A DNA stretch of 64,000 nucleotides, taken from Catalinimonas niigatensis. Lineage in GTDB: Bacteria > Bacteroidota > Bacteroidia > Cytophagales > Cyclobacteriaceae. Made by a program: the position numbers and the translations under genes. The DNA lies in contig NZ_CP119422.1 of NCBI RefSeq assembly GCF_030506285.1, forward strand, positions 5,753,501-5,817,500, written 5' to 3'. Below the pieces are notes generated by a model, which was not told the DNA's origin, did not search any database, and was given only the letters and a program-made list of their open reading frames with translations. This document shows, in pieces, positions 53,086 to 64,000 of the stretch (its first letter is position 1; every line of letters starts with the position of its first letter).

Positions 53086-53820
53086 TCACTGTAACTTTGA
53101 TAAGATCTCCTGACTTTCTTCACGATAAGCACTTTCTTTCTCTGTTAATGAGGATAAGATTTCTTTGGCCTTCGCTGGCTGCTCATTTTGAAGATAAGCC
53201 AGGGCGAGATACCATTGTGCATCAATGTGATAGACAGAAAGCGTATTCTCCTCCACTTTATTAAGATACTCAATGGCTAAGTCAGCTTGTTCTTCAGCTA
53301 AAGATGCTATGCCCACATAAAAGTTAAGGGTGTCATTCTCAGGATCAGCTTCCAGCAGTGGCTGCCACCATTCCCTGGCTTCGGCATAATCACCGAGTTT
53401 ATAAGAGATCATACCTTCGGAGAATTGGGCATTACGGGTGTAACTCAGCGTAGTAGGTAGCCCGGCTGCCGGACTAAAGTAAGCGCTATACAAGGCGGTT
53501 GGCGAAGACTGCTGCGATGTGAAATACCACCAACCTATTACTAAAAGCGATAAAGAAGCGGCCACTGCCATGTAGGGTAAGAAACGCTGACGCTGGATAG
53601 ATACAACAGGCGTTTCTTCGGCAAAGTTTTCTTCATGAATTTGCTCCAGAAGCTGACGCAGCGATTCGGTTTCAATAGAATGTATGAGTTCCTGCTGTAA
53701 AGTCACCTCGGCAGCCAATTCCTCGTTTTCTGCCAGATTAGCTTCAAAAAGCTCTCGTTCTTCGGGCGTAAGCTGGCCCTGAAGGTAGGCTTCTATTTTT
53801 TCAAATAATAACTCGTCCAT
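53086..53820 (-). CDS. Membrane TPR protein, probable anti-sigma partner
   Basis: A 244-residue protein starting at the ATG at 53820. The acidic cytosolic N-terminus (MDELLFEKIEAYLQGQLTPEERELFEANL) has the zinc-free anti-sigma look of Bacteroidota membrane anti-sigma factors. One helix follows (residues 81-100, LPYMAVAASLSLLVIGWWYF), then TPR repeats (about 140-244, including AREWWQPLLEADPENDTLNFYVG). It starts 18 bases after the sigma factor gene, in the usual sigma/anti-sigma order. The TPR part would sense an envelope partner; that is inference. Confidence 0.8.
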   Translation of the reverse strand: MDELLFEKIEAYLQGQLTPEERELFEANLAENEELAAEVTLQQELIHSIETESLRQLLEQIHEENFAEETPVVSIQRQRFLPYMAVAASLSLLVIGWWYFTSQQSSPTALYSAYFSPAAGLPTTLSYTRNAQFSEGMISYKLGDYAEAREWWQPLLEADPENDTLNFYVGIASLAEEQADLAIEYLNKVEENTLSVYHIDAQWYLALAYLQNEQPAKAKEILSSLTEKESAYREESQEILSKLQ

Positions 53821-54479: not shown

Positions 54480-54920
54480 TTAATAGCCGTAATTCAAGCC
54501 TTCTTTTTGCTGGTAATTTTCATTCTGGGCATTGGGGTAAGCATTAAGAGTACTCGAAGGATAGTAACTGCCAGACTCATTAGGATAACCTCTATTCTCT
54601 TGTGCCTGTGGCATCTGGTTATTCATCTGTTGCTGGAACTGCATTGCGGGCTGTTGTGAGGAGGCAGCAGGAAAGGACTGGTTACCGGGCTGATACGGTA
54701 CATCCTGCTGAGCCGGTTGCTGTAAAGGCTGCGAATATTGCTGCTGTATGGAAGGTGTATACTCTTCTGGCCGTAAATAAGGATTTCCCATGGTCTGGTA
54801 AGAGTAGGTGTCGAGAAGTCCATAGGCAGCAATCATCCCAAGGGCCACGACCCAAACCATCATATTCATAGAGCCGAATTGTGATAAATAAGCTTGAAAG
54901 AGTTGTTTAAAAGATTTCAT
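54480..54920 (-). CDS. Gln/Pro/Tyr-rich membrane-anchored protein
   Basis: A 146-residue protein, not recognised. It opens MKSFKQLFQAYLSQFG, with a helix at about residues 19-37 (MNMMVWVVALGMIAAYGLL), then a long low-complexity tail rich in Q, P, Y, N and S (PSIQQQYSQPLQQPAQQ) ending NYGY. It would sit in the inner membrane with its tail in the periplasm. The MKxFKxL start resembles those of the larger proteins at 57358, and its promoter carries the shared ECF motif. Confidence 0.7.
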   Translation of the reverse strand: MKSFKQLFQAYLSQFGSMNMMVWVVALGMIAAYGLLDTYSYQTMGNPYLRPEEYTPSIQQQYSQPLQQPAQQDVPYQPGNQSFPAASSQQPAMQFQQQMNNQMPQAQENRGYPNESGSYYPSSTLNAYPNAQNENYQQKEGLNYGY

Positions 54921-54951: not shown

Positions 54952-54980
54952 GTATAGAACTCATGTATATAAGGTCATCA
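54952..54980 (-). promoter_or_regulatory. ECF promoter P1 (Gln/Pro/Tyr-rich protein gene)
   Basis: On the reverse strand TGATGACCTT (54971-54980) and TTCTATAC (54952-54959) are separated by 11 bases. Start codon 31 bases downstream of the second block. Matches P2 exactly in both blocks. Confidence 0.75.
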
Positions 54981-54997
54981 TCACACAAAATTTTTTA

Positions 54998-55510
54998 TTA
55001 TGCTGGTGTGCCAACAACGATGGACCTGCTCCATTTCCAGGACTTATACAACACTTCAGGATGCTGTACATAGGTTTGCCCGTTGGCAGGATCACTGACA
55101 ACGATCAGGTTATTGGTAGCTATTTTTTGCAGGATGATAAAATGACCCACGCTTGGATTGTCGGTAGGATTGACAAAAGCGATTAATTTCCAGCCACTGG
55201 CTAGAGTGGAATACAATTGCTCAGGAGAAGCAGGGTAATCCACGCTCCAGGCTCTAAAGCGATAGGATTGTAAAAGTTGCACCACTTCATTGATGTGGGC
55301 TGGTCTGTTTTGTGGATAACCGGTGAGCCTGGCTACGATCTGGGATTGGCTTTGGTAAACATTGGCCTGATCCAATGCGCTTTGTATGCAGGAGGCCCAG
55401 CACCACATACTGTTTTCCTGTGGCCTGATTTGAGCATAGCCCTGACTTACTCCTAATGAGCATAACAGTGATATCAAAAACAAAACTTTAGGAAGGCTTA
55501 TCGTTTTCAT
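54998..55510 (-). CDS. Secreted papain-like cysteine protease
   Basis: A 170-residue exported enzyme starting at the ATG at 55510, with a signal peptide ending GYAQ (about residue 27). The papain-like set is complete: Q31 and C37 in PQENSMWCWAS, H123 in VGHFIIL and D140 in VVSDPANG. The spacing matches the AvrRpt2/C70-type papain-like family. No propeptide is visible beyond the signal. Targets unknown. It shares a transcript with the small upstream gene (62-base gap) under promoter P4, so the ECF factor is likely to control it. Confidence 0.88.
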   Translation of the reverse strand: MKTISLPKVLFLISLLCSLGVSQGYAQIRPQENSMWCWASCIQSALDQANVYQSQSQIVARLTGYPQNRPAHINEVVQLLQSYRFRAWSVDYPASPEQLYSTLASGWKLIAFVNPTDNPSVGHFIILQKIATNNLIVVSDPANGQTYVQHPEVLYKSWKWSRSIVVGTPA

Positions 55511-55572
55511 TGTAGATAATTTTTTGAGAATTAACATGTGGTTTTTTAGTTATTTCACTGATTATGTCTTCT

Positions 55573-55773
55573 TCATTCGTTTTGATACAGGTAAAGAGTA
55601 TCAGCAGAAACATGAGAACTAGCCAGATGCATAGCATTGGTGTTTGCATATAGCTGTATGTGAGCAGTTGCTGGATTTATAGCGATTGTAGGTGTATGAT
55701 CTGTATTGCTTAAGCCAAAGAAGGCCTTCATTACTACAATCATAAGGAGCAAAAGTATTCGAGAATGGTTCAT
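55573..55773 (-). CDS. Small secreted peptide
   Basis: A 66-residue product starting at the ATG at 55773: signal-like MNHSRILLLLMIVVMKAFFGLS followed by a short polar part with no recognised motif. Support for its reality is the ECF promoter P4 38 bases upstream and its place ahead of the protease gene. It could be an inhibitor or substrate of the protease; there is no sequence evidence for either. Confidence 0.5.
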   Translation of the reverse strand: MNHSRILLLLMIVVMKAFFGLSNTDHTPTIAINPATAHIQLYANTNAMHLASSHVSADTLYLYQNE

Positions 55774-55810
55774 GATGATGTAGATTTATGTAGTGAAGTA
55801 GTATACTGAT

Positions 55811-55839
55811 GTATAGCTTATCGCGGTCCAAAGTCATCA
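55811..55839 (-). promoter_or_regulatory. ECF promoter P4 (small peptide-protease operon)
   Basis: On the reverse strand TGATGACTTT (55830-55839) and AGCTATAC (55811-55818) are separated by 11 bases. Two or three positions differ from P1 and P2 but the spacing is identical. Confidence 0.65.
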
Positions 55840-55859
55840 TATACAAGCTGTTTTTTCAT

Positions 55860-55893
55860 AAAAAAAAGCCCACCGCAACAGTGTACGGTGAGC
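55860..55893 (-). terminator. Hairpin terminator, copy 1
   Basis: On the reverse strand an eight-base stem (GCTCACCG with CGGTGGGC, one wobble) is followed by seven to eight T, 24 bases after the stop of the 399-residue protein gene. A close copy sits behind the paralogous gene at 57211-57245. Confidence 0.85.
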
Positions 55894-55916
55894 TCATGAA
55901 ACACAGGATTTTCCAA

Positions 55917-57116
55917 CTAATATGCGGGCCGCGAAGGCGTGATTTCCTGCCAGTCATCCTGCAAAGAATCGGCCTTGACCCCTGGGTCGTAAGTATCGTT
56001 TTTATGGTGATAAGAATAATCAAATTGATCGCCTTCCTCTTTGATCATCTGATCATTATCCGGCTCTATAATAGAAGAATCCTCCCTGATCAGATCAATA
56101 TAGTCCTGATGACTCCGCTTATTGCCTGGAGAATGATAGTAGGTACTGTATATATAGTTATCCTTCCATATTCTGTTACAAGGGTCTTCCTTTTTTTTCA
56201 AAGTCCCTGTTTTATTATCCTTGTAAAAGTCTAACATGACACCCCTCGCACAAGGTGAGTTGCGCCGCCGCTCCTCCTGTTGAATTTGTCTTACACGCTG
56301 TTCAAAAACAGGATTTTCTTCAAAGCTATGGTCAATTTGTTCCGTAATATGCAGTGTCTGAGCAAACAGCTTGGCCGGAGCAAGAGCAAAGCCTGCCATC
56401 AATGTCCCCACGTCGGGAACATGGGGCAGGATTAAATGGGTAATCCGAACTACTCCCTGGTATGCTTGTCCTTGACTGAAACCAGAGAGACTAGCTTCCA
56501 GATAGTGCAATTGATAGCCCATGCTGCTGAGTTGATCTGCATACTTCTTCACTGCATCATTGGTAGGCAGATGCTTTCTAGGCTTCAAATCACCTAAAAT
56601 GATCTCATTAAGTTTGTCTTGTAAACCAGTTCTAACAGTTTGTCTCCAGCTTTGCTCCAGGTCCATTCCTGCATTGGCATCGTAGGCAGTAATTCCCAGG
56701 TTGCGAATCAGTTCTCCCTGAGGCCCCAGGATATCCAGCTTATTTCGCAGTAGTGCGCCAGTGTAGGAATCGGTAGCCAGGTCCTGAACCAACTTCCATC
56801 CTTTAGGAATGACATATGAGCCTCTTGACATTTGTAAACCCTGGTCATAGAGTTCTACTTTCTGCCCATCATTTCCCTGTCCTGGTGCTTGTTTCGCTCC
56901 TGTACCTGATTGAGGATGTTGATCAGCCACATAGGAGGTAAAGGTAAGCGCTTCCTGATCACTATTAGTCCCGGCAGTATGGTTAGAAATAGGAGAAGCA
57001 ATTCCATTATCAGATGCATCTTCCTGAAACATGAATGCAAAACAAACGATAAGAAGCAGACCAGATACAAGAATAAAGATCTGTTGGGCAGGTGACAAGC
57101 TTTGATGAGGTTTCAT
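55917..57116 (-). CDS. Membrane-anchored protein, paralogue A
   Basis: A 399-residue protein with one N-terminal helix (residues 12-31, IFILVSGLLLIVCFAFMF), a low-complexity linker, then a domain from about residue 85: YDQGLQMSRGSYVIPKGWKLVQDLAT, NKLDILGPQGELIRNLGI. The C-terminus reads SLQDDWQEITPSRPAY. It is clearly homologous to the 410-residue protein of the next upstream gene across the central domain and the tail, so the two arose by duplication. No known family recognised. Expected in the inner membrane, facing the periplasm. Promoter P3 precedes it. Confidence 0.8.
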   Translation of the reverse strand: MKPHQSLSPAQQIFILVSGLLLIVCFAFMFQEDASDNGIASPISNHTAGTNSDQEALTFTSYVADQHPQSGTGAKQAPGQGNDGQKVELYDQGLQMSRGSYVIPKGWKLVQDLATDSYTGALLRNKLDILGPQGELIRNLGITAYDANAGMDLEQSWRQTVRTGLQDKLNEIILGDLKPRKHLPTNDAVKKYADQLSSMGYQLHYLEASLSGFSQGQAYQGVVRITHLILPHVPDVGTLMAGFALAPAKLFAQTLHITEQIDHSFEENPVFEQRVRQIQQEERRRNSPCARGVMLDFYKDNKTGTLKKKEDPCNRIWKDNYIYSTYYHSPGNKRSHQDYIDLIREDSSIIEPDNDQMIKEEGDQFDYSYHHKNDTYDPGVKADSLQDDWQEITPSRPAY

Positions 57117-57160
57117 GAGGATTTAATTTTATGGCTATGGGTAGATAGTTATTTTCTTAT

Positions 57161-57189
57161 GGATAGAAGGCAGCAAGCATAGGTCATCA
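57161..57189 (-). promoter_or_regulatory. ECF promoter P3 (paralogue A gene)
   Basis: On the reverse strand TGATGACCTA (57180-57189) and TTCTATCC (57161-57168) are separated by 11 bases, 45 bases before the start codon. Confidence 0.7.
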
Positions 57190-57210
57190 TGGGAGCTTGC
57201 ATTTGATCAT

Positions 57211-57245
57211 AAAAAAAGGCCCACCGTAGCCGTGTACGATGAGCC
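57211..57245 (-). terminator. Hairpin terminator, copy 2
   Basis: On the reverse strand a ten-base stem (GGCTCATCGT with ACGGTGGGCC, two wobbles) is followed by seven T. It lies about 110 bases after the stop of paralogue B and is nearly identical to copy 1, as expected if gene and terminator were duplicated together. Confidence 0.85.
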
Positions 57246-57357
57246 TGTAAAATAAAGAGCTTGACTATTAAGCACCAGTGCTATTTCACTCCAACCTAAA
57301 ATGTTGTACGTCAACCTTTTATAGCAAAGAAATACCTTATTATTTATGCTCAGCTAC

Positions 57358-58590
57358 TTAATAGCCGGGATTCAGAGGAGTGATTTCCTGCCAGTCACCC
57401 TGCAAAGAATTGGGATTGAAACTGGGGTCATTGGTGCGATAATACTCTCCTAATCCATTGGTATAGTTGTAATCGTATTGTCCATCCATATTTTGCTGCT
57501 GGCCTGACCAGGGGTCATCAAAAGTGCTGCGTTCGTGGATTCCATCAATGTAAGCATCATGGCTGCCATATCCGCTGCTGGAAGAAGAGTTATAAGAACC
57601 ACTGCTTATAGGGTCACTCATATAGCGTTTGTGTTGGGCATCCTGTAGCTGACTCATGTCTCTCATCCTGCCCTGGTGAGCATCAAAGGCAGCCTGGTTA
57701 TCGGCCATTCTTTGCTGGTGCGCTGCACTGGAATTTGCCATTTGTTGATTATGGAAAGCAGCATTACGTTGCAAGACTGCCTGCTGAATCTGCTCTCTAC
57801 GCTGCTCATAAGCTGGGTTGTACTCAAGGCTATTGTCTATCTCTGATTTTATCTTCATAAGGGAAGCAGTGTTACCAGCCGGGGCAATCGCTCCAATTGC
57901 AGATAATGCTCCCATTTGTGCACCTACCTGAGTGACCTGGATGACCCCTTCGTAATGCTGACCATTGCGGTAGCCGGAAACAGGGGCCTTCATACATTGT
58001 ACCTGAGTACCATTGTTGATCATACGCTGATAAATGCTGAATCGCATTAGTCTCTGTTGCGCCTCAGGATCTTGTTCCATATTGCCTACCTGCACTTGCT
58101 CGAGTTCCAGGCGGCTAAGTACTCTCTGTAAGCCTTGCATAAAGTCTATGCCTGTCATACCTCCGTACTGGCTACTTCCCAATGCCCGGATAAGCTCTCC
58201 TTTTGGGCCAACGATATCTAATTTATCTCTCACAGGCTGATTAGTAGAAGGGTCTACAGCAATGTCTTGTATGAGCTTCCAGCCTTGAGGAATATGATAA
58301 GTGCCAACGGGCATTTGCAAGCCCTGATCCATAACCACTATGGGCTGCGTTGATCCGGATTTAGTAGTTGTTGAAGAAGTAGATTGCATAGGATTAGAAG
58401 TTGTCTGGTTTGAACTTGAATAGTCAGTATTATTGGAAGCAGGATAAGCAGATTCCTCATAGATGGGATAGCCCCCCATGTCTGAAGTATTCGCATCGTC
58501 ATTGTTGAGTGCATAATAACCGATGACCAGCAGCGATACGACTACAGTAAGAATCTGCTGAGTGCGGGATAAGTTTTTAAAAGCTTTCAT
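57358..58590 (-). CDS. Membrane-anchored protein, paralogue B
   Basis: A 410-residue protein with an N-terminal helix (about residues 12-28, ILTVVVSLLVIGYYALN), a Ser/Thr/Asn-rich linker (SNQTTSNPMQSTSSTTTKSG), and the domain shared with paralogue A (MDQGLQMPVGTYHIPQGWKLIQD, KLDIVGPKGELIRALG). A Gln/Ala/Asn/Met-rich helical section (about 255-310) follows, and the tail is SLQGDWQEITPLNPGY. Unknown family. The promoter (P2) matches P1 exactly. The conserved tail suggests a binding or processing signal. Confidence 0.8.
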   Translation of the reverse strand: MKAFKNLSRTQQILTVVVSLLVIGYYALNNDDANTSDMGGYPIYEESAYPASNNTDYSSSNQTTSNPMQSTSSTTTKSGSTQPIVVMDQGLQMPVGTYHIPQGWKLIQDIAVDPSTNQPVRDKLDIVGPKGELIRALGSSQYGGMTGIDFMQGLQRVLSRLELEQVQVGNMEQDPEAQQRLMRFSIYQRMINNGTQVQCMKAPVSGYRNGQHYEGVIQVTQVGAQMGALSAIGAIAPAGNTASLMKIKSEIDNSLEYNPAYEQRREQIQQAVLQRNAAFHNQQMANSSAAHQQRMADNQAAFDAHQGRMRDMSQLQDAQHKRYMSDPISSGSYNSSSSSGYGSHDAYIDGIHERSTFDDPWSGQQQNMDGQYDYNYTNGLGEYYRTNDPSFNPNSLQGDWQEITPLNPGY

Positions 58591-58618
58591 ACTATTGTAG
58601 GTTAGTTAATTTAGTGAT

Positions 58619-58647
58619 GTATAGAATCGATCTGTTCAAGGTCATCA
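58619..58647 (-). promoter_or_regulatory. ECF promoter P2 (paralogue B gene)
   Basis: On the reverse strand TGATGACCTT (58638-58647) and TTCTATAC (58619-58626) are separated by 11 bases, 29 bases before the start codon. Confidence 0.75.
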
Positions 58648-58758: not shown

Positions 58759-61700
58759 CTATACCTTTTTTCTTGATTTCAGTACAGCCCACACCAAAAG
58801 TATTGCTCCCAATAAACCCAATAAAAGTATCAGGATATTTTGGCGTGTCATCCAGGGAGAGGATGCCTGCACACTTTGGTTTTCGCCGGTAAGCACCAGG
58901 CCAGCCCAATAATAGGGTGCCCGGTAATCCGCTTCAGGATCATCCAGATAAGCCAGTTTGGCTGCACGCAATGCCTGGGCCAGCGTCATATCCTGTTGAA
59001 GGTTCTGGTAGAATAACTCGGCGATCTGGTTAGACTGCTGGTCATCAATACTCCACAGGCTATAAATGACACTGGGGCAGCCGGCATAACGAAAGGCATG
59101 GGCCAGAGACAGCACTCCTTCTCCGCGACGATAGCTTCCCAGACCGGTCTCACATGCGGTAAGTACTGCCAATCTGGCTTGTAAGGGCTGGTGATACAAT
59201 TCGTAAGTATGTAAGTATCCGTCTTCCTGGCTGGTAATGTCAGGCGTAAGTGCCAGAAAACTGTACAAAGGTTTTTCATTTTCTAAGCGGGCATGGGTGC
59301 CAAAATGTAGAATGTTTGCCTGAATGCTTTTTTCCAGATACTGTTTCTCTGTGGCTGCATGTGCTGTCAAAGCATCGCCCCAGCCTTTACGGGGAAGCTG
59401 CTGTACAAATGAAGTAGACCAGGGGGTTCGCAGCCAGTGTAAAAACAGTGAGTCGGGATGCTGATCAGCCGTCAGGCTTTTTTGATAATCCGATTTTAAA
59501 GCCTGGGAAAAACCAGGTGCTACCCCCAGAATGTTTTCCCGTTCCAGCGAGCTCGTTATTGCACTACTCGGAAGGCTATGCCCATAGAATATACAATACT
59601 CCCGGATAAGCCAGGGCCAGCGTGCAGGGGAAGAGGCCAGTGCTGGCAGTTGGGAAAGTAGCGTCTCAAAGTTGAGATAATAGAGCGGGCCATCGGCCAG
59701 CACCTTTACCTGCATTTTGAGTGAGGCAGATAACGGTGCCCATAAGTGTTGATAGAGAAAGTAGCCTAAATGTGCCTGCCGCTCTAGTTCGCTTTGGGTC
59801 TGAATCAGTGCATGGTAAGCATAGAGCGAATCCTGCCAACCCCCAGGCATGCTCAGCCAGTGCGTTTGAAAGGTATCGGCAGAGGCATGTAGTACCAGCA
59901 GCGCTGTATCCAGATGAAAGTACGCCAGCAGAGATTGGTCATCCTGCTGTAAGGCCTTTTGCAGATCGTCGGGACTGACGGTAGGAGACTCAAATCGGGT
60001 CTGGTAATAGTCGGGATAATGTTTTTCTAAGTGCTGCTGAAAGTTTTGCCATTCCTGGAACAATGCTACCTGTTGTTCAGGCATCTCTTGTGCCTCTCCT
60101 TCCTCATCGGCAATCTTCTGCTGACGGGCAAAGACAAATCGGAGTTGTTGTCGGAGCAACTGGCCCTGCTGTACCAGGGAATCAGGTACACCGGCAAAAC
60201 GAATAGCCTGCCGGTCACGAAAAGCCGACTGAATGGTAGTACCCCGGCTGGCTTGTATACAGTCCAACAGCAGGGATTGCCAGCCTTTAGGTGCAATATT
60301 GGGCTCAAGTAAGGCATAGTGCGCCAGTACGGCCCCTTGTCGGTAAACTTCCTGCACCGGATCAGCCACAGATTCACCCAGCGACTCGTCGTTAAACAGG
60401 GAGAGAAAAGTAGGTAGCCAGTTTTGGACGCGCTCTAAGATAAACCTGCCGATCGTTAGTTCCTGTGCTGATATGGTGACAGGATGTCTCAGCAGATGAC
60501 TAAGATGAAAATTTGCCAATGTGAGCACCTGTGGATGATATTGGCTGATATTGATAGTGTCCAGAGCCATCATGTCCGGTAGGCCCTGGTTAAGACCGCA
60601 GACACTTCCCCAGGCGAGTTGAAGATAAAATTGTGTACTGTCCGTCTCCTCAAGTGCTGCAAAAACCTCGGCCAGTTGCAGCAGATTTTCCAGCGTATGG
60701 TGATGCGCAAGGCCAAAGCTTTGACGATAAATACGCAAGGAAGTGCGCCATTGCCGGATCGCTGCTGTCTGTCGGTTATTTTTCCAATCAATCTCGGCCA
60801 GTTGGTATAGCGCATCCGCTCGTTTGGGATGGTCTGCTCCCAATGTGGCCTTTCGAATTTGTTCCGACTTGTTAAAATATTCTCTGGCCAATGGCCACTG
60901 TTCTCTTTCCAGCGCAATCAAGCCAACATTATACATGCTCTGGCCAATTTCTGCATGCTGGTTTTCGTATAGCTCCTGCTTCTCTTCTAAAGCAAGTTTG
61001 AATAGAGAGTCCGCCTGCTCCAGTTGATCCTGCTGATAATAAACGGCTCCCAAGGCGTCTCTGAGATTGGCACGATAATAATCAGGGTACTCAATCAGCG
61101 TATCCGCAATGGTCCATGCCTGCTGAAAATAAGACTGGGCGGTCCTGCTTTCATCTAAATTCATATACAGTGTTCCGAGATTCACATAATTGAAAACCAG
61201 AGGATACCACCGCTTCCCGGCACGGTTAGAAGCTATCGCCTTCTGTAGGTAGTTTTTTGCGTTTTGAGGATCTCCCATATCCATCAGATGACTGCTGTAA
61301 TTATTGGCAATGATGGCGACATGCGGGTGATCCTGGGGTAGCTGATGGTTAAGAATTTGCCAGGCTTCAGCCAGCACGGTATCCGCACTGTACAACTCAC
61401 CCAGGGTGGATAAGATGATATAAAGGGTATTGGCACTATATCCCAACTCTTTGTCCAGGGGAGGTAAAAACGACTTTCGTAGCTTGTGGGCTGCTGTGGC
61501 CCATGTTTTGGCAGCCGCATACTCTTGCCGCTGCATGTGAATAAACCCCTTTAATTCATAACTTTTAGCCAGTTGAAAGCTATCGGTGCTCGACCGCTCT
61601 GTCTCCGTGCTGATGCTTTTTTCAACATATTCAAGGGCTTGCTGAAAGTCTGCTTCCCCCACATAAGTATAGCCAATTTCATGGTAAACTGGACTTAGCA

Positions 61701-62001
61701 AAGCAGAATCCAGAGGGGGAGTTTTCCATGAGAGTATCGCCTCTAATAAAGACCTGGCTTTCTGGTACTCATATTCCTGTATGTAGCTTTTTGCTTCTCT
61801 TAGCTGATAATATCGGGCACTGTCAGCATTTTTTACATTTTGCCAAGCGATTACCAGTTCATGGTAGGCAAGGGCAGCCTGAGGAAATTGCCCCTGCTGG
61901 TACAAACGATCCGCTGCTGTGGGCACAGGATTTTCCTGGGCAAACACGCTGAAGCAGAGGTTGCTTAAGAGGAGTGCAAGCAAAAATAAGAATGGGCGCA
62001 T
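58759..62001 (-). CDS. TPR-CHAT (caspase-like) protein with C-terminal membrane helix
   Basis: A 1080-residue exported protein starting at the ATG at 62001 (MRPFLFLLALLLSNLCFSVF, signal ending FAQ). A long TPR superhelix (about residues 20-520) contains repeats such as ALEYVEKSISTE and DHPHVAIIANNYSSHLMDMG. After a helical linker, the CHAT domain (about 750-1035) has the caspase-like dyad H903 in ILHFGTHARLENEKP and C950 in LTACETGLGSYRRGEGV. A membrane helix near the end (about 1055-1073) is followed by KSRKKV. It would be a periplasm-facing, membrane-tethered protease scaffold. It has no shared ECF promoter of its own that I can see; weak -10-like sequence only. Confidence 0.9.
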   Translation of the reverse strand: MRPFLFLLALLLSNLCFSVFAQENPVPTAADRLYQQGQFPQAALAYHELVIAWQNVKNADSARYYQLREAKSYIQEYEYQKARSLLEAILSWKTPPLDSALLSPVYHEIGYTYVGEADFQQALEYVEKSISTETERSSTDSFQLAKSYELKGFIHMQRQEYAAAKTWATAAHKLRKSFLPPLDKELGYSANTLYIILSTLGELYSADTVLAEAWQILNHQLPQDHPHVAIIANNYSSHLMDMGDPQNAKNYLQKAIASNRAGKRWYPLVFNYVNLGTLYMNLDESRTAQSYFQQAWTIADTLIEYPDYYRANLRDALGAVYYQQDQLEQADSLFKLALEEKQELYENQHAEIGQSMYNVGLIALEREQWPLAREYFNKSEQIRKATLGADHPKRADALYQLAEIDWKNNRQTAAIRQWRTSLRIYRQSFGLAHHHTLENLLQLAEVFAALEETDSTQFYLQLAWGSVCGLNQGLPDMMALDTINISQYHPQVLTLANFHLSHLLRHPVTISAQELTIGRFILERVQNWLPTFLSLFNDESLGESVADPVQEVYRQGAVLAHYALLEPNIAPKGWQSLLLDCIQASRGTTIQSAFRDRQAIRFAGVPDSLVQQGQLLRQQLRFVFARQQKIADEEGEAQEMPEQQVALFQEWQNFQQHLEKHYPDYYQTRFESPTVSPDDLQKALQQDDQSLLAYFHLDTALLVLHASADTFQTHWLSMPGGWQDSLYAYHALIQTQSELERQAHLGYFLYQHLWAPLSASLKMQVKVLADGPLYYLNFETLLSQLPALASSPARWPWLIREYCIFYGHSLPSSAITSSLERENILGVAPGFSQALKSDYQKSLTADQHPDSLFLHWLRTPWSTSFVQQLPRKGWGDALTAHAATEKQYLEKSIQANILHFGTHARLENEKPLYSFLALTPDITSQEDGYLHTYELYHQPLQARLAVLTACETGLGSYRRGEGVLSLAHAFRYAGCPSVIYSLWSIDDQQSNQIAELFYQNLQQDMTLAQALRAAKLAYLDDPEADYRAPYYWAGLVLTGENQSVQASSPWMTRQNILILLLGLLGAILLVWAVLKSRKKV

Positions 62002-62119
62002 GGCGCTAGGGGTTATTGAATCAGTTAAAATAATAAAATAATAGAAAATTAATGCATGCGTTCTCACAATAGACCGGCTAAGCTTCCGACTCGTATCTTA
62101 AGTCCTGCATTCCGAACTT

Positions 62120-62860
62120 TTAATAAAAATCACTTCCGCCATCAAAATCACTTCCATCTGCTCCAACCCCTCCGTCTCCAAAACTGCCACCACCTAAGTC
62201 AAATGAATCAAAACCTTCATAATCATAATATGGGTGAGACAAACCCTGTGCATTCCACGCCAGGTTTTCTTTACTGTGAAATTGGCTAATGGCAGACAAT
62301 TCTTGGAGTAGCTGACTATCTACTTTGCCCAGGAGAAATATATTCAATCCCAGTCTGCTTGTCGTTTCTGCAAGCCTGTTCAAATCCTTGTCTCCTTTTT
62401 TTAATTCTTTTTCAGACGATTTTAGTAAGGATTTCAAGTGTGCCTTACAGGCTTTCCCTTTCTTTGAGCGTTTATAAAGGTATATTTTAGTGAAAACCGA
62501 ATCTACAAAAAAGCCATCCTGTACTAAAGATTCATACACTTGTTTTTTAAAGTTTTGTACATCTTTGCGAGACTTAAACAGTGCGTTCACCAATACCCTG
62601 AGAGGGATCCTGATATTTTTCTTTTTGAAAGGGCTCAAAAAAACAGCATGATAGGCCTTCACCTGGATCGTATCAAAATTGTCACCTCTATGGATATGAT
62701 AGTGTTTTAATTTAGGCGATTTTTTGGCGACAAGCAGTACTTTCAAATGCATCAATTCTAACAAAGTAAATTTGATGAGTTCTCTACCGGATGCAGTGAT
62801 TGGACGCAAAAGCATGACTGACTCAGTAGGATAAATATCGTTCAGGTTCATTGAAATCAT
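62120..62860 (-). CDS. Unknown protein with Gly/Asp-rich tail
   Basis: A 246-residue protein, not recognised. The body is basic and helical (ASGRELIKFTLLELMHLKVL, KKGKACKAHLKSLLKSSEKEL) with no signal peptide. The last ~40 residues are low complexity (DSFDLGGGSFGDGGVGADG) and end GSDFY. Start at the ATG at 62860, or three codons later. The stop of the beta-propeller gene is nine bases upstream, so the two are cotranscribed, and the CHAT gene follows about 120 bases later. Confidence 0.6.
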   Translation of the reverse strand: MISMNLNDIYPTESVMLLRPITASGRELIKFTLLELMHLKVLLVAKKSPKLKHYHIHRGDNFDTIQVKAYHAVFLSPFKKKNIRIPLRVLVNALFKSRKDVQNFKKQVYESLVQDGFFVDSVFTKIYLYKRSKKGKACKAHLKSLLKSSEKELKKGDKDLNRLAETTSRLGLNIFLLGKVDSQLLQELSAISQFHSKENLAWNAQGLSHPYYDYEGFDSFDLGGGSFGDGGVGADGSDFDGGSDFY

Positions 62861-62869
62861 GTTGTTTTT

Positions 62870-64000
62870 TTATCGTAATGGTCCGGCAATGAATACCCGT
62901 GCATTTTGAGGAGAAACAATTCCTGTGACATCTGCCGGACCGCTGATGTAGGTAACAAACCTTCCGTCGCTGGAGAGCACCGGATTTACACTGGCCTGAT
63001 TGCTTCCCAACGTCAGGTTGACCAATTGCCCATTGATAAAAGCGTATATATCATAAGTGAAGTTATTATCAGCTACGCCCAGATTATTGGCCGAAGAAGA
63101 GAAAACGATCACATTACCGTCGGCTGAAATATCCGGTGTGTGGCTAAATCCATTGGCATCCACAGGGGTAAGTCGGGTATAGCGGGGAATCGTCTGATCA
63201 AAGAGAAAAATATCTACCAGTCCATTCCCATCTTCTGCCCCCGTAAGATCACCCATCTCTGACTCAAACACAATCAGCCTGCCATCCCCACTGATCCTGG
63301 GGCTATCAGAATAGGCTGTAGAGCGTGTAATGGGAATATTGCTGCCATTGGCTGCATCATACAGCCAAACCGAAGGAGACTGCTGGGGACTAAGCTGATC
63401 CACATTGACCCAGGTATGGAAACGTCCGTTGGTAGAAAAATCCACAGGTTGTCCATTGCTGATCACCGGCCCCTGCAAAGTATTTAGTGGAGCTACGATA
63501 TGATTCAAATTGATACTTACGGCCAGTTGTTGCCCGTCAGGAGAGATGATATTGGAGAAGGCTACCAGAGGCGTAATCAGAGGTATGGGTGATGACGGGT
63601 CCTGAGCTCCTTGCTGTATGGGTCGTACTGTATTATTTTCCCATAAGTAGATGGCCGTAGGACTTGAAGGAAGTGCCGGGCTTTGTGAAGCAGTAAACAA
63701 GACACGGTCGCCAGTGTCAGAAATGCTTGCTGATAAAGCATTACTCACCAGGTTAGGAGAAAGTAACAACCAGGTATTATTTTGCCGGTCAAGTCGGTAC
63801 ACATCTATAAAATTATCCTGATCATTAGGGACCAGACGGGCAGAGGTAGTCAACACAATAAAGCGACCATTCCCGGAAATAGCCAGGTTGAACAGTTCAC
63901 CATTTGCTAACTCGTTGGGCAAGGCAGTGTTGGCAAATCCTGAGGGTAAGTTGGCAGCAGGGTTGTTGCCTGTATCAGGAGCAGGGTCATCTTCCGATTG
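62870..64000 (-). CDS. Beta-propeller (TolB/WD40-like) protein, N-terminus outside window
   Basis: The frame is open through position 64000, so the start lies beyond the window; 376 residues are visible. The first visible stretch is an acidic, Pro/Asn-rich linker (SEDDPAPDTGNNPAANLPSG). Repeats then show TolB/PD40-type blades such as FNLAISGNGRFIVLTTSARL, ISDTGDRVLFTASQS, ISGDGRLIVFESEMG, ISADGNVIVFSSSAN and LSSDGRFVTYISGPA. Likely secreted or lipid-anchored and used for protein contacts. It precedes the Gly/Asp-tail and CHAT genes on the same strand. Confidence 0.8.
   Translation of the reverse strand, partial: QSEDDPAPDTGNNPAANLPSGFANTALPNELANGELFNLAISGNGRFIVLTTSARLVPNDQDNFIDVYRLDRQNNTWLLLSPNLVSNALSASISDTGDRVLFTASQSPALPSSPTAIYLWENNTVRPIQQGAQDPSSPIPLITPLVAFSNIISPDGQQLAVSINLNHIVAPLNTLQGPVISNGQPVDFSTNGRFHTWVNVDQLSPQQSPSVWLYDAANGSNIPITRSTAYSDSPRISGDGRLIVFESEMGDLTGAEDGNGLVDIFLFDQTIPRYTRLTPVDANGFSHTPDISADGNVIVFSSSANNLGVADNNFTYDIYAFINGQLVNLTLGSNQASVNPVLSSDGRFVTYISGPADVTGIVSPQNARVFIAGPLR

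What the first reader, a model, noticed from the sequence alone, without database searches (positions are those of the whole stretch)
54952..58647. Four promoters with TGATGACCTT-N11-TTCTATAC: a dedicated ECF regulon
At 54952, 55811, 57161 and 58619 the same two blocks occur on the reverse strand with exactly 11 bases between them, 29 to 45 bases before start codons. P1 and P2 are identical in both blocks; P3 and P4 differ at two to three positions. The spacers are unrelated, so this is not a simple duplication. The adjacent ECF sigma factor is the natural reader. The genes controlled are the Gln/Pro/Tyr-rich protein, the peptide-protease pair and both paralogues.
Basis: partly seen in the sequence, partly recalled or inferred. 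Interest (0 to 1): 0.85.

Follow-up and report, generated by a model that had tools for sequence, protein, structure and literature searches.

The report
Private promoter set of one regulator
A bacterium of the phylum Bacteroidota keeps a private set of on-switches for a row of exported proteins, very likely flipped by its own neighbouring regulator and perhaps triggered by a caspase-like enzyme at the cell envelope; relatives keep the same switch sequence, but no experiment has been done yet.

Summary
The four sites are real: 4 matches in 64 kb against 0.06 expected. A fifth lies 106 bases past the window edge. Spacing is fixed: over 18 cluster loci TGATGACC-Nk-CTAT occurs 35 times at the finding's spacing, 0 times at the 16 other spacings from 9 to 25, once at 8. 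Four other genomes with an orthologous sigma factor carry the motif before most cargo genes and before the sigma operon. Of 13 further loci picked by sigma homology alone, 9 have exact sites, reversed control 0. A sister clade of the sigma factor has a variant, TGATGACA-N14/15-C.ATG; this is one evolutionary change. The adjacent ECF factor is therefore the likely reader. A TPR-CHAT protease with intact His/Cys is encoded in the same locus; I infer, not show, that it triggers sigma release. No transcript or binding data exist. An ECF regulon is a known kind; this wiring is a new variant.

The parts
54952..54980 (-). Promoter P1 (TGATGACCTT-N11-TTCTATAC), before the QPY, sigma and anti-sigma genes
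   Evidence: 0 mismatches; 37.5 bits
55811..55839 (-). Promoter P2, before the 66-aa peptide and papain-like protease genes
   Evidence: 3 mismatches; 23.3 bits; a weaker site (4 mismatches) at the same place in G001
57161..57189 (-). Promoter P3, before paralogue B
   Evidence: 2 mismatches; 32.3 bits
58619..58647 (-). Promoter P4, before paralogue A
   Evidence: 0 mismatches; 34.5 bits
53838..54407 (-). ECF sigma factor, 189 aa (start set by alignment to relatives at MTIRT; the ORF listing gives 54434)
   Evidence: (TIGR02937 72.3 bits, cut-off 42.9)
53086..53820 (-). Putative membrane anti-sigma: N-terminal helical domain, one TM, outer TPR domain
54480..54920 (-). Gln/Pro/Tyr-rich protein with one N-terminal TM; first gene behind P1
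54998..55510 (-). Secreted papain-like protease (Peptidase_C39/C70-like), 170 aa from MKTISLP; the ORF listing gives 55537
   Evidence: (PF03412 E 4.7e-5)
55573..55773 (-). 66-aa peptide with a hydrophobic N-terminus
   Evidence: counterpart in G001 (E 1.7e-4)
55917..57116 (-). Paralogue B: TM anchor and the same domain as A (32% identity)
57358..58590 (-). Paralogue A: TM anchor, PsbP/LpqN/DcrB-like domain, coiled coil, conserved tail
58759..62067 (-). TPR-CHAT protease with signal peptide and C-terminal TM; His925/Cys972 in the numbering of the 1102-aa frame (likely start at 62001); no motif directly upstream
62120..62860 (-). 246-aa protein with Gly-rich tail, no family found; lies between the PD40 and CHAT genes with short gaps
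62870..64000 (-). PD40 beta-propeller lipoprotein (gene runs to 64054); promoter P5 beyond the window at 64106-64132
   Evidence: PD40 named by Pfam on the G147 orthologue
55866..55895 (-). Intrinsic terminator between paralogue B and P2
   Evidence: z -4.8
57217..57246 (-). Intrinsic terminator between paralogue A and P3
   Evidence: z -5.4

Best explanation
The motif is the -35/-10 promoter of one small ECF regulon and the adjacent ECF sigma factor reads it. TGATGACC is the -35 block (read by sigma region 4), YTCTATA the -10 block (region 2), with an invariant gap. The sigma factor is held by the membrane protein encoded just downstream (cytoplasmic helical domain, one TM, outer TPR domain). 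On a signal at the envelope it is released, transcribes its own operon (positive feedback) and exported cargo: two anchored PsbP/LpqN-fold proteins, a peptide plus secreted papain-like protease, a Gln/Pro/Tyr-rich membrane protein and a PD40 lipoprotein. Shown by sequence: motif, spacing, conservation, linkage, one motif/sigma covariation. Inferred: binding, anti-sigma action, order of events. Most speculative step (about 0.5): the exported, membrane-anchored TPR-CHAT protease cuts the outer part of the anti-sigma and so starts release. The confidence given here is for promoter and reader, not for the CHAT step.
For: Chance excluded. 35 sites at one spacing, 0 at 16 others from 9 to 25, 1 at spacing 8. 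40 of 40 sites in those loci have an ATG of a frame of 60 aa or more within 117 nt downstream, against 645 of 2160 random positions. Motif before cargo and sigma operon in four further genomes. Loci chosen only by sigma homology: 9 of 13 have exact sites, 18 in all, reversed control 0. In 390 family genomes the stringent motif occurs 16 times in 6 genomes, reversed control 0; five of the six have the sigma and cargo, the sixth (G209) is one site in a coding frame. The sister clade has [TC]GATGACA-N14/15-C.ATG, 13 sites in 5 loci, and no TGATGACC-N-CTAT. A predicted unlinked member in G001 is a lipoprotein whose 72% identical counterpart sits inside the G026 cluster. A matrix from 18 sites of other genomes ranks the four window sites first, 23-38 bits, next best 8.2. 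Anti-sigma: NCBIfam model E 1.1e-8. CHAT pair in 15 of 15 aligned, signal peptide and C-terminal TM in the window protein.
Against: No transcript or binding data. The motif/sigma change is a single event on the tree. In the sister clade only 3 of 5 sigma genes have a TGATGAC site within 450 nt upstream. L101 has the sigma but no good site upstream; L097, L099 and L104 have only degenerate -10 blocks. The matrix was trained on sites picked with the window's consensus, so it is not fully independent, and P5 (16.4 bits) is near the best of ten random sequences (16.2). The anti-sigma model score, 35.3, is far below its cut-off of 100, and the 50 fold matches listed of 1252 are nearly all TPR proteins with no anti-sigma among them. 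CHAT has no motif directly upstream in any of the five close clusters and no CHAT gene was found in the stretch held for 4 of 13 sigma loci (L100, L102, L103, L106). No call links CHAT to cleavage.
Confidence: 0.88

Rival explanations
1. The motif is the site of another reader (a different sigma factor or a DNA-binding activator) that also controls the sigma operon; the adjacent sigma factor acts elsewhere.
For: Only sequence evidence exists; the genome has 12 matches to this sigma at E up to 0.001. The -10 block is unlike the CGT box of the inferred Flavobacterium ECF motif.
Against: The motif follows the sigma factor across families and changes with it; none of 22 other, more distant ECF genes tested (L042-L063) has the bipartite motif within 450 nt upstream; a fixed two-block geometry suits a sigma factor.
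Confidence: 0.07
2. The promoter and sigma reading is right, but the TPR-CHAT protease is not the trigger: it is a neighbour or a downstream effector, and the anti-sigma is released by general site-1/site-2 proteases or by ligand binding to its TPR domain.
For: CHAT lacks a motif of its own, was not found in the stretch held for L100, L102, L103 and L106, and in L105 is a distant opposite-strand gene.
Against: sigma, anti-sigma and CHAT share one locus in all five sister-clade loci (adjacent in four, about 3.7 kb apart in L068) and in all five close clusters (4-6 kb apart); a CHAT hit is in 9 of 13 further loci; catalytic pair conserved and exported topology in most.
Confidence: 0.42
3. The repeated sites are leftovers of local gene duplication rather than kept promoters.
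For: Paralogues A and B are 32% identical and both have a site.
Against: Spacers are unrelated; sites also precede unrelated genes (QPY, peptide, PD40, unlinked lipoprotein) and other cargo in other families (FHA-trypsin, PP2C).
Confidence: 0.01

Closest known systems
ECF sigma factor / membrane anti-sigma pairs (RpoE-RseA, SigW-RsiW; recalled, also named in the PMC10028731 passages)
   Same: Small sigma factor with regions 2 and 4, adjacent membrane partner, self-activating promoter, envelope cargo.
   Different: Outer domain is TPR; motif TGATGACC / YTCTATA; cargo mostly without named families; a caspase-like protease gene belongs to the locus.
Type III-E CRISPR Craspase/CASP (Csx29 TPR-CHAT, Csx30, CASP-sigma; PMC10028731, passages read)
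   Same: TPR-CHAT protease, a sigma-binding inhibitor and an ECF factor with sites in its own locus.
   Different: No CRISPR family among the locus genes scanned apart from the weak III-E sigma match; here CHAT is exported and membrane-anchored and the inhibitor spans the membrane; sigma scores 33 bits on the III-E model, cut-off 100.
SM6 promoters of Flavobacterium psychrophilum (PMC9723704, passages read)
   Same: Same phylum; promoter class tied by the authors to an ECF/anti-sigma pair.
   Different: [quoted passage not shown] here the -10 block is YTCTATA.
EACC2/caspase systems with an ECF factor and a TPR protein (PMC8195603, passages read)
   Same: Proposed link of a caspase-fold peptidase, a TPR protein and an ECF factor.
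   Different: Other domains (EACC2, DUF1822); no promoter motif in the passages read.

Membership tests
ECF (group IV) sigma factors | Regions 2 and 4 only, above the superfamily cut-off | tested here: met
   Sigma70_r2 41.6 bits (cut-off 24); TIGR02937 72.3 (cut-off 42.9); Sigma70_r4 22.2, just under its own cut-off of 24.1
ECF (group IV) sigma factors | Recognises its own operon's promoter | tested here: inconclusive
   Motif upstream of sigma operons; recognition itself not assayed
Membrane anti-sigma factor | N-terminal helical domain, single TM, outer domain | tested here: met
   AlphaFold model (mean pLDDT 83) and hydropathy; orientation assumed
Membrane anti-sigma factor | Score above a curated anti-sigma model | tested here: not met
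   NF052375 35.3 bits, cut-off 100; zf-HC2 E 0.089: may work like one, membership unproven
Membrane anti-sigma factor | Binds and inhibits the sigma factor | not testable with these tools
   No complex prediction or assay
TPR-CHAT proteases | CHAT domain with His/Cys pair after TPR repeats | tested here: met
   PF12770 150 bits; pair in 15 of 15 aligned; activity not assayed
Type III-E CRISPR CASP-sigma | Score above the III-E sigma model | tested here: not met
   NF041236 33.1 bits, cut-off 100
Type III-E CRISPR CASP | Cas7-11/gRAMP and CRISPR array present | not tested
   None among the locus proteins scanned; genome not searched for it
Bacteroidota housekeeping promoter (TAnnTTTG) | TAnnTTTG box near the start codon | tested here: not met
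   None in the 150 nt before the ATG at P1-P4; at P5 one at about 150 nt, upstream of the motif

The most novel reading that the evidence does not exclude
A CRISPR-free, envelope-facing counterpart of Craspase signalling: an exported TPR-CHAT caspase-like protease is a dedicated site-1 protease that pairs with the outer TPR domain of a membrane anti-sigma and switches on a private ECF promoter class, found in at least two classes of Bacteroidota with exchangeable cargo.
Probability: 0.4. Interest if true: 0.82.

Novelty: new variant of a known kind. Interest (0 to 1): 0.62.

Why it matters
It gives a sharply defined promoter class, a named reader and a short cargo list, so the pathway can be tested with a few reporters. 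If the TPR-CHAT protease is the trigger, the sigma/inhibitor/CHAT circuit known from type III-E CRISPR would have an envelope-signalling relative in ordinary Bacteroidota, which would bear on where that CRISPR module came from. The sister-clade motif change (TGATGACC to TGATGACA, -10 CTATA to mostly CGATG) beside the region 4 change from NEKYRC to NNKYRC or NTKYRC offers a natural specificity switch to dissect.

Tried and rejected
Of the weak matches elsewhere in the window's genome, the one other exact hit (L012) is antisense inside a 487-aa frame; L014 and L023 (2 mismatches) are intergenic but 178 and 229 nt from a start and were not counted; most others examined lie in coding frames. At up to 2 mismatches the reversed control has more hits (27) than the pattern (21), so only exact matches there are informative. 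Two of the twelve hits (5971595, 6731574) came without a locus and were not examined. Relaxed motif hits in the sister genomes G002 (2) and G120 (1) lie in or antisense to coding frames. Duplication was rejected (unrelated spacers and cargo). Defence-system reading: PADLOC gave 0 hits for 7 proteins. The fold search for the anti-sigma gave no anti-sigma match. The fold match of paralogue A is modest (LpqN E 3.9e-4, target TM-scores about 0.4-0.5). The terminator scan found 10 against 5.1 by chance; only the two with long stems were used, and the stretch between the CHAT gene and P4 folds no better than shuffles, so read-through from CHAT into paralogue A is possible. The G147 unlinked site precedes only a 43-codon frame and is not counted as a member. 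Row L064:5422-6213 in alignment A1 is not a member of the paralogue family (18% identity), so its matches (G026 193508, G001 6622533) are not counted as paralogues. Of the 16 loci, three (L092-L094) are the G026, G197 and G147 clusters by equal contig length and were left out of the 13. The sigma search was run on 59 genomes, not on all 390, and not on G120 or G176. The ECF reclassification paper (Casas-Pastor 2021; recalled, and in a reference list seen) is not held, so whether this group is already numbered there is unknown. Paper searches that listed no paper describing this locus type: (open-licence library only); passages were read of three papers, the others were seen as listings.
Full report
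Observation. The window is positions 5753501-5817500 of a single 7.13-Mb contig. Four minus-strand sites match TGATGACCTT-N11-TTCTATAC: 54952 (0 mismatches), 58619 (0), 57161 (2) and 55811 (3); 0.06 expected by shuffling. The gaps to the ATG are 28-44 bases. A fifth site (TGATGACTTT-N11-TTCTAT) lies just past the window; the ATG of a PD40 lipoprotein gene begins 52 nt downstream of it. Genome-wide, TGATGACYTT-N11-TTCTAT has four exact places; three are in this cluster and the fourth is antisense in a coding frame. TGATGACY-N14-YCTAT has six, four in the cluster and two in coding frames; reversed control 1. So the regulon in this genome appears to be local.

Is it a promoter? No housekeeping box TAnnTTTG lies in the 150 nt before the ATG at P1-P4; at P5 one lies upstream of the motif. 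Strong intrinsic terminators stand between paralogue A and P3 and between paralogue B and P2, so the genes behind P2 and P3 need promoters of their own. Over 18 cluster loci (334 kb) TGATGACC-Nk-CTAT occurs 35 times at k=15, the finding's spacing, once at k=8, and 0 times at k=9-14 and 16-25. Of 40 sites TGATGAC[CT]-N15-CTAT in these loci, 40 have an ATG of a same-strand frame of at least 60 aa within 117 nt, against 645 of 2160 random positions; L107:7636 lies inside a longer frame and is probably chance. A matrix from 18 sites of other genomes, picked there with the consensus, gives the four window sites 37.5, 34.5, 32.3 and 23.3 bits, the next best place 8.2, and the best places of ten random 64-kb sequences 5.3-16.2; P5 scores 16.4, first in its 19.9-kb stretch but near the random maximum. 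P5 is backed by sites before the orthologous PD40 gene in G147 and G197.

Relatives. Close sigma orthologues lie in G026 (82%), G001 (69%), G147 and G197 (67%). By equal contig length G026 is Catalimonadaceae bacterium JC749, and G147 and G197 are uncultured Flammeovirgaceae MAGs. In G026 sites precede a paralogue-A gene, a 291-aa lipoprotein and the QPY gene; in G001 five genes have a site with 1-4 mismatches; G147 and G197 have five and six candidate sites before cargo, the sigma gene and PD40, with 1-3 mismatches to a longer pattern. None lies directly before CHAT in the five clusters; in the window CHAT is third behind P5 with short gaps. The stringent motif occurs 16 times in 6 of 390 family genomes, reversed control 0 in all. 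Five of the six have sigma and cargo; the sixth (G209) is one site in a coding frame. Three genomes of the same genera (G002, G120, G176) lack the paralogue family: of 12 genomes tested 5 have it, the same five. An unlinked site in G001 stands before a lipoprotein 72% identical to the 291-aa lipoprotein of the G026 cluster; G197 has a shorter one (54% over 101 residues) with a site. The window genome has no match to that lipoprotein.

Loci chosen by sigma homology alone. The genome scan gave 16 loci; leaving out the three close clusters, 13 belong to Saprospiraceae, Bacteroidia or Bacteroidetes MAGs with sigma at 37-56% identity. Nine of 13 hold exact sites, 18 in all, reversed control 0; the 8-mer TGATGACC occurs 27 times, its reverse 4 times. 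L097, L099 and L104 have TGATGACC at the right place with a degenerate -10 block; L101 has none. Their cargo differs: L103 has FHA-trypsin and PP2C genes behind sites, and a protein kinase gene next to the PP2C gene. Catalimonadaceae and Saprospiraceae belong to different classes, Cytophagia and Saprospiria.

Covariation. Five more distant sigma factors (L066-L070) have NNKYRC or NTKYRC in region 4 where the other 18 have NEKYRC. Their loci have no TGATGACC-N-CTAT; instead [TC]GATGACA-Nk-C.ATG occurs 9 times at k=14, 4 at k=15 and 0 elsewhere from 8 to 21, before sigma, lipoprotein and other genes, though only 3 of 5 sigma genes have a TGATGAC within 450 nt upstream. None of 22 other ECF genes (L042-L063) has such a bipartite site within 450 nt upstream. 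The two classes fall on the two sides of one branch of the sigma tree, support 100/99. It is one change, not many.

Partners. The gene after sigma encodes a protein with an N-terminal helical domain, one TM and a TPR domain; an NCBIfam anti-sigma model matches at E 1.1e-8 but below its cut-off. The CHAT protein has a signal peptide, TPR repeats, a CHAT domain, a C-terminal TM and a basic tail; the His/Cys pair is kept in 15 of 15 aligned. Paralogue A is predicted as a TM-anchored PsbP/LpqN/DcrB-like domain plus a coiled coil (pLDDT about 90 in the domain; best match LpqN, E 3.9e-4).

Mechanism. Best reading: envelope signal, then release of sigma from the membrane protein, then transcription of its own operon and exported cargo. 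Sequence supports promoter and reader strongly; anti-sigma action is inferred from architecture and linkage; the CHAT step is inferred from linkage, topology, intact catalytic residues and the parallel with Craspase, where TPR-CHAT Csx29 cuts Csx30, an inhibitor of an ECF factor with sites in its own locus (PMC10028731, passages). Here no CRISPR family was met above cut-off among the locus proteins scanned, and the sigma fails the III-E model (33 vs 100 bits).

Known or new. ECF regulons with private promoters are a known kind. In Flavobacterium psychrophilum the inferred ECF motif has a CGT box (PMC9723704, passages), unlike YTCTATA here. Seven searches of the open library listed no description of this locus type, but the main ECF classification paper is not held. 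Hence: new variant of a known kind, with moderate to high interest because it is directly testable.

Noticed in passing
L066-L070: The sister clade of the sigma factor has its own promoter class, [TC]GATGACA-N14/15-C.ATG, before lipoprotein genes (one of beta-lactamase fold in L066) and a large protein without Pfam match (L067).
   Followed up: partly
L103:1407-9234 and L105:6850-14217: The same promoter class stands before FHA-trypsin and PP2C genes (protein kinase gene next to the latter) and, in L105, before a beta-barrel protein gene, in Saprospiraceae-type genomes.
   Followed up: partly
window 57358-58590 and 55917-57116: Family without Pfam hit: predicted PsbP/LpqN/DcrB-like fold with TM anchor, long coiled coil and a conserved C-terminal tail.
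   Followed up: partly
window 62120-62860: 246-aa protein with Gly/Asp-rich tail and no family match, between the PD40 and CHAT genes.
   Followed up: no
L107:488-7088: Two TPR-CHAT genes in tandem upstream of the sigma gene.
   Followed up: no
G147:C62:67944 (L142): Good promoter motif before what is only a 43-codon frame resembling the start of the G197 lipoprotein gene; possibly a decayed regulon member.
   Followed up: partly
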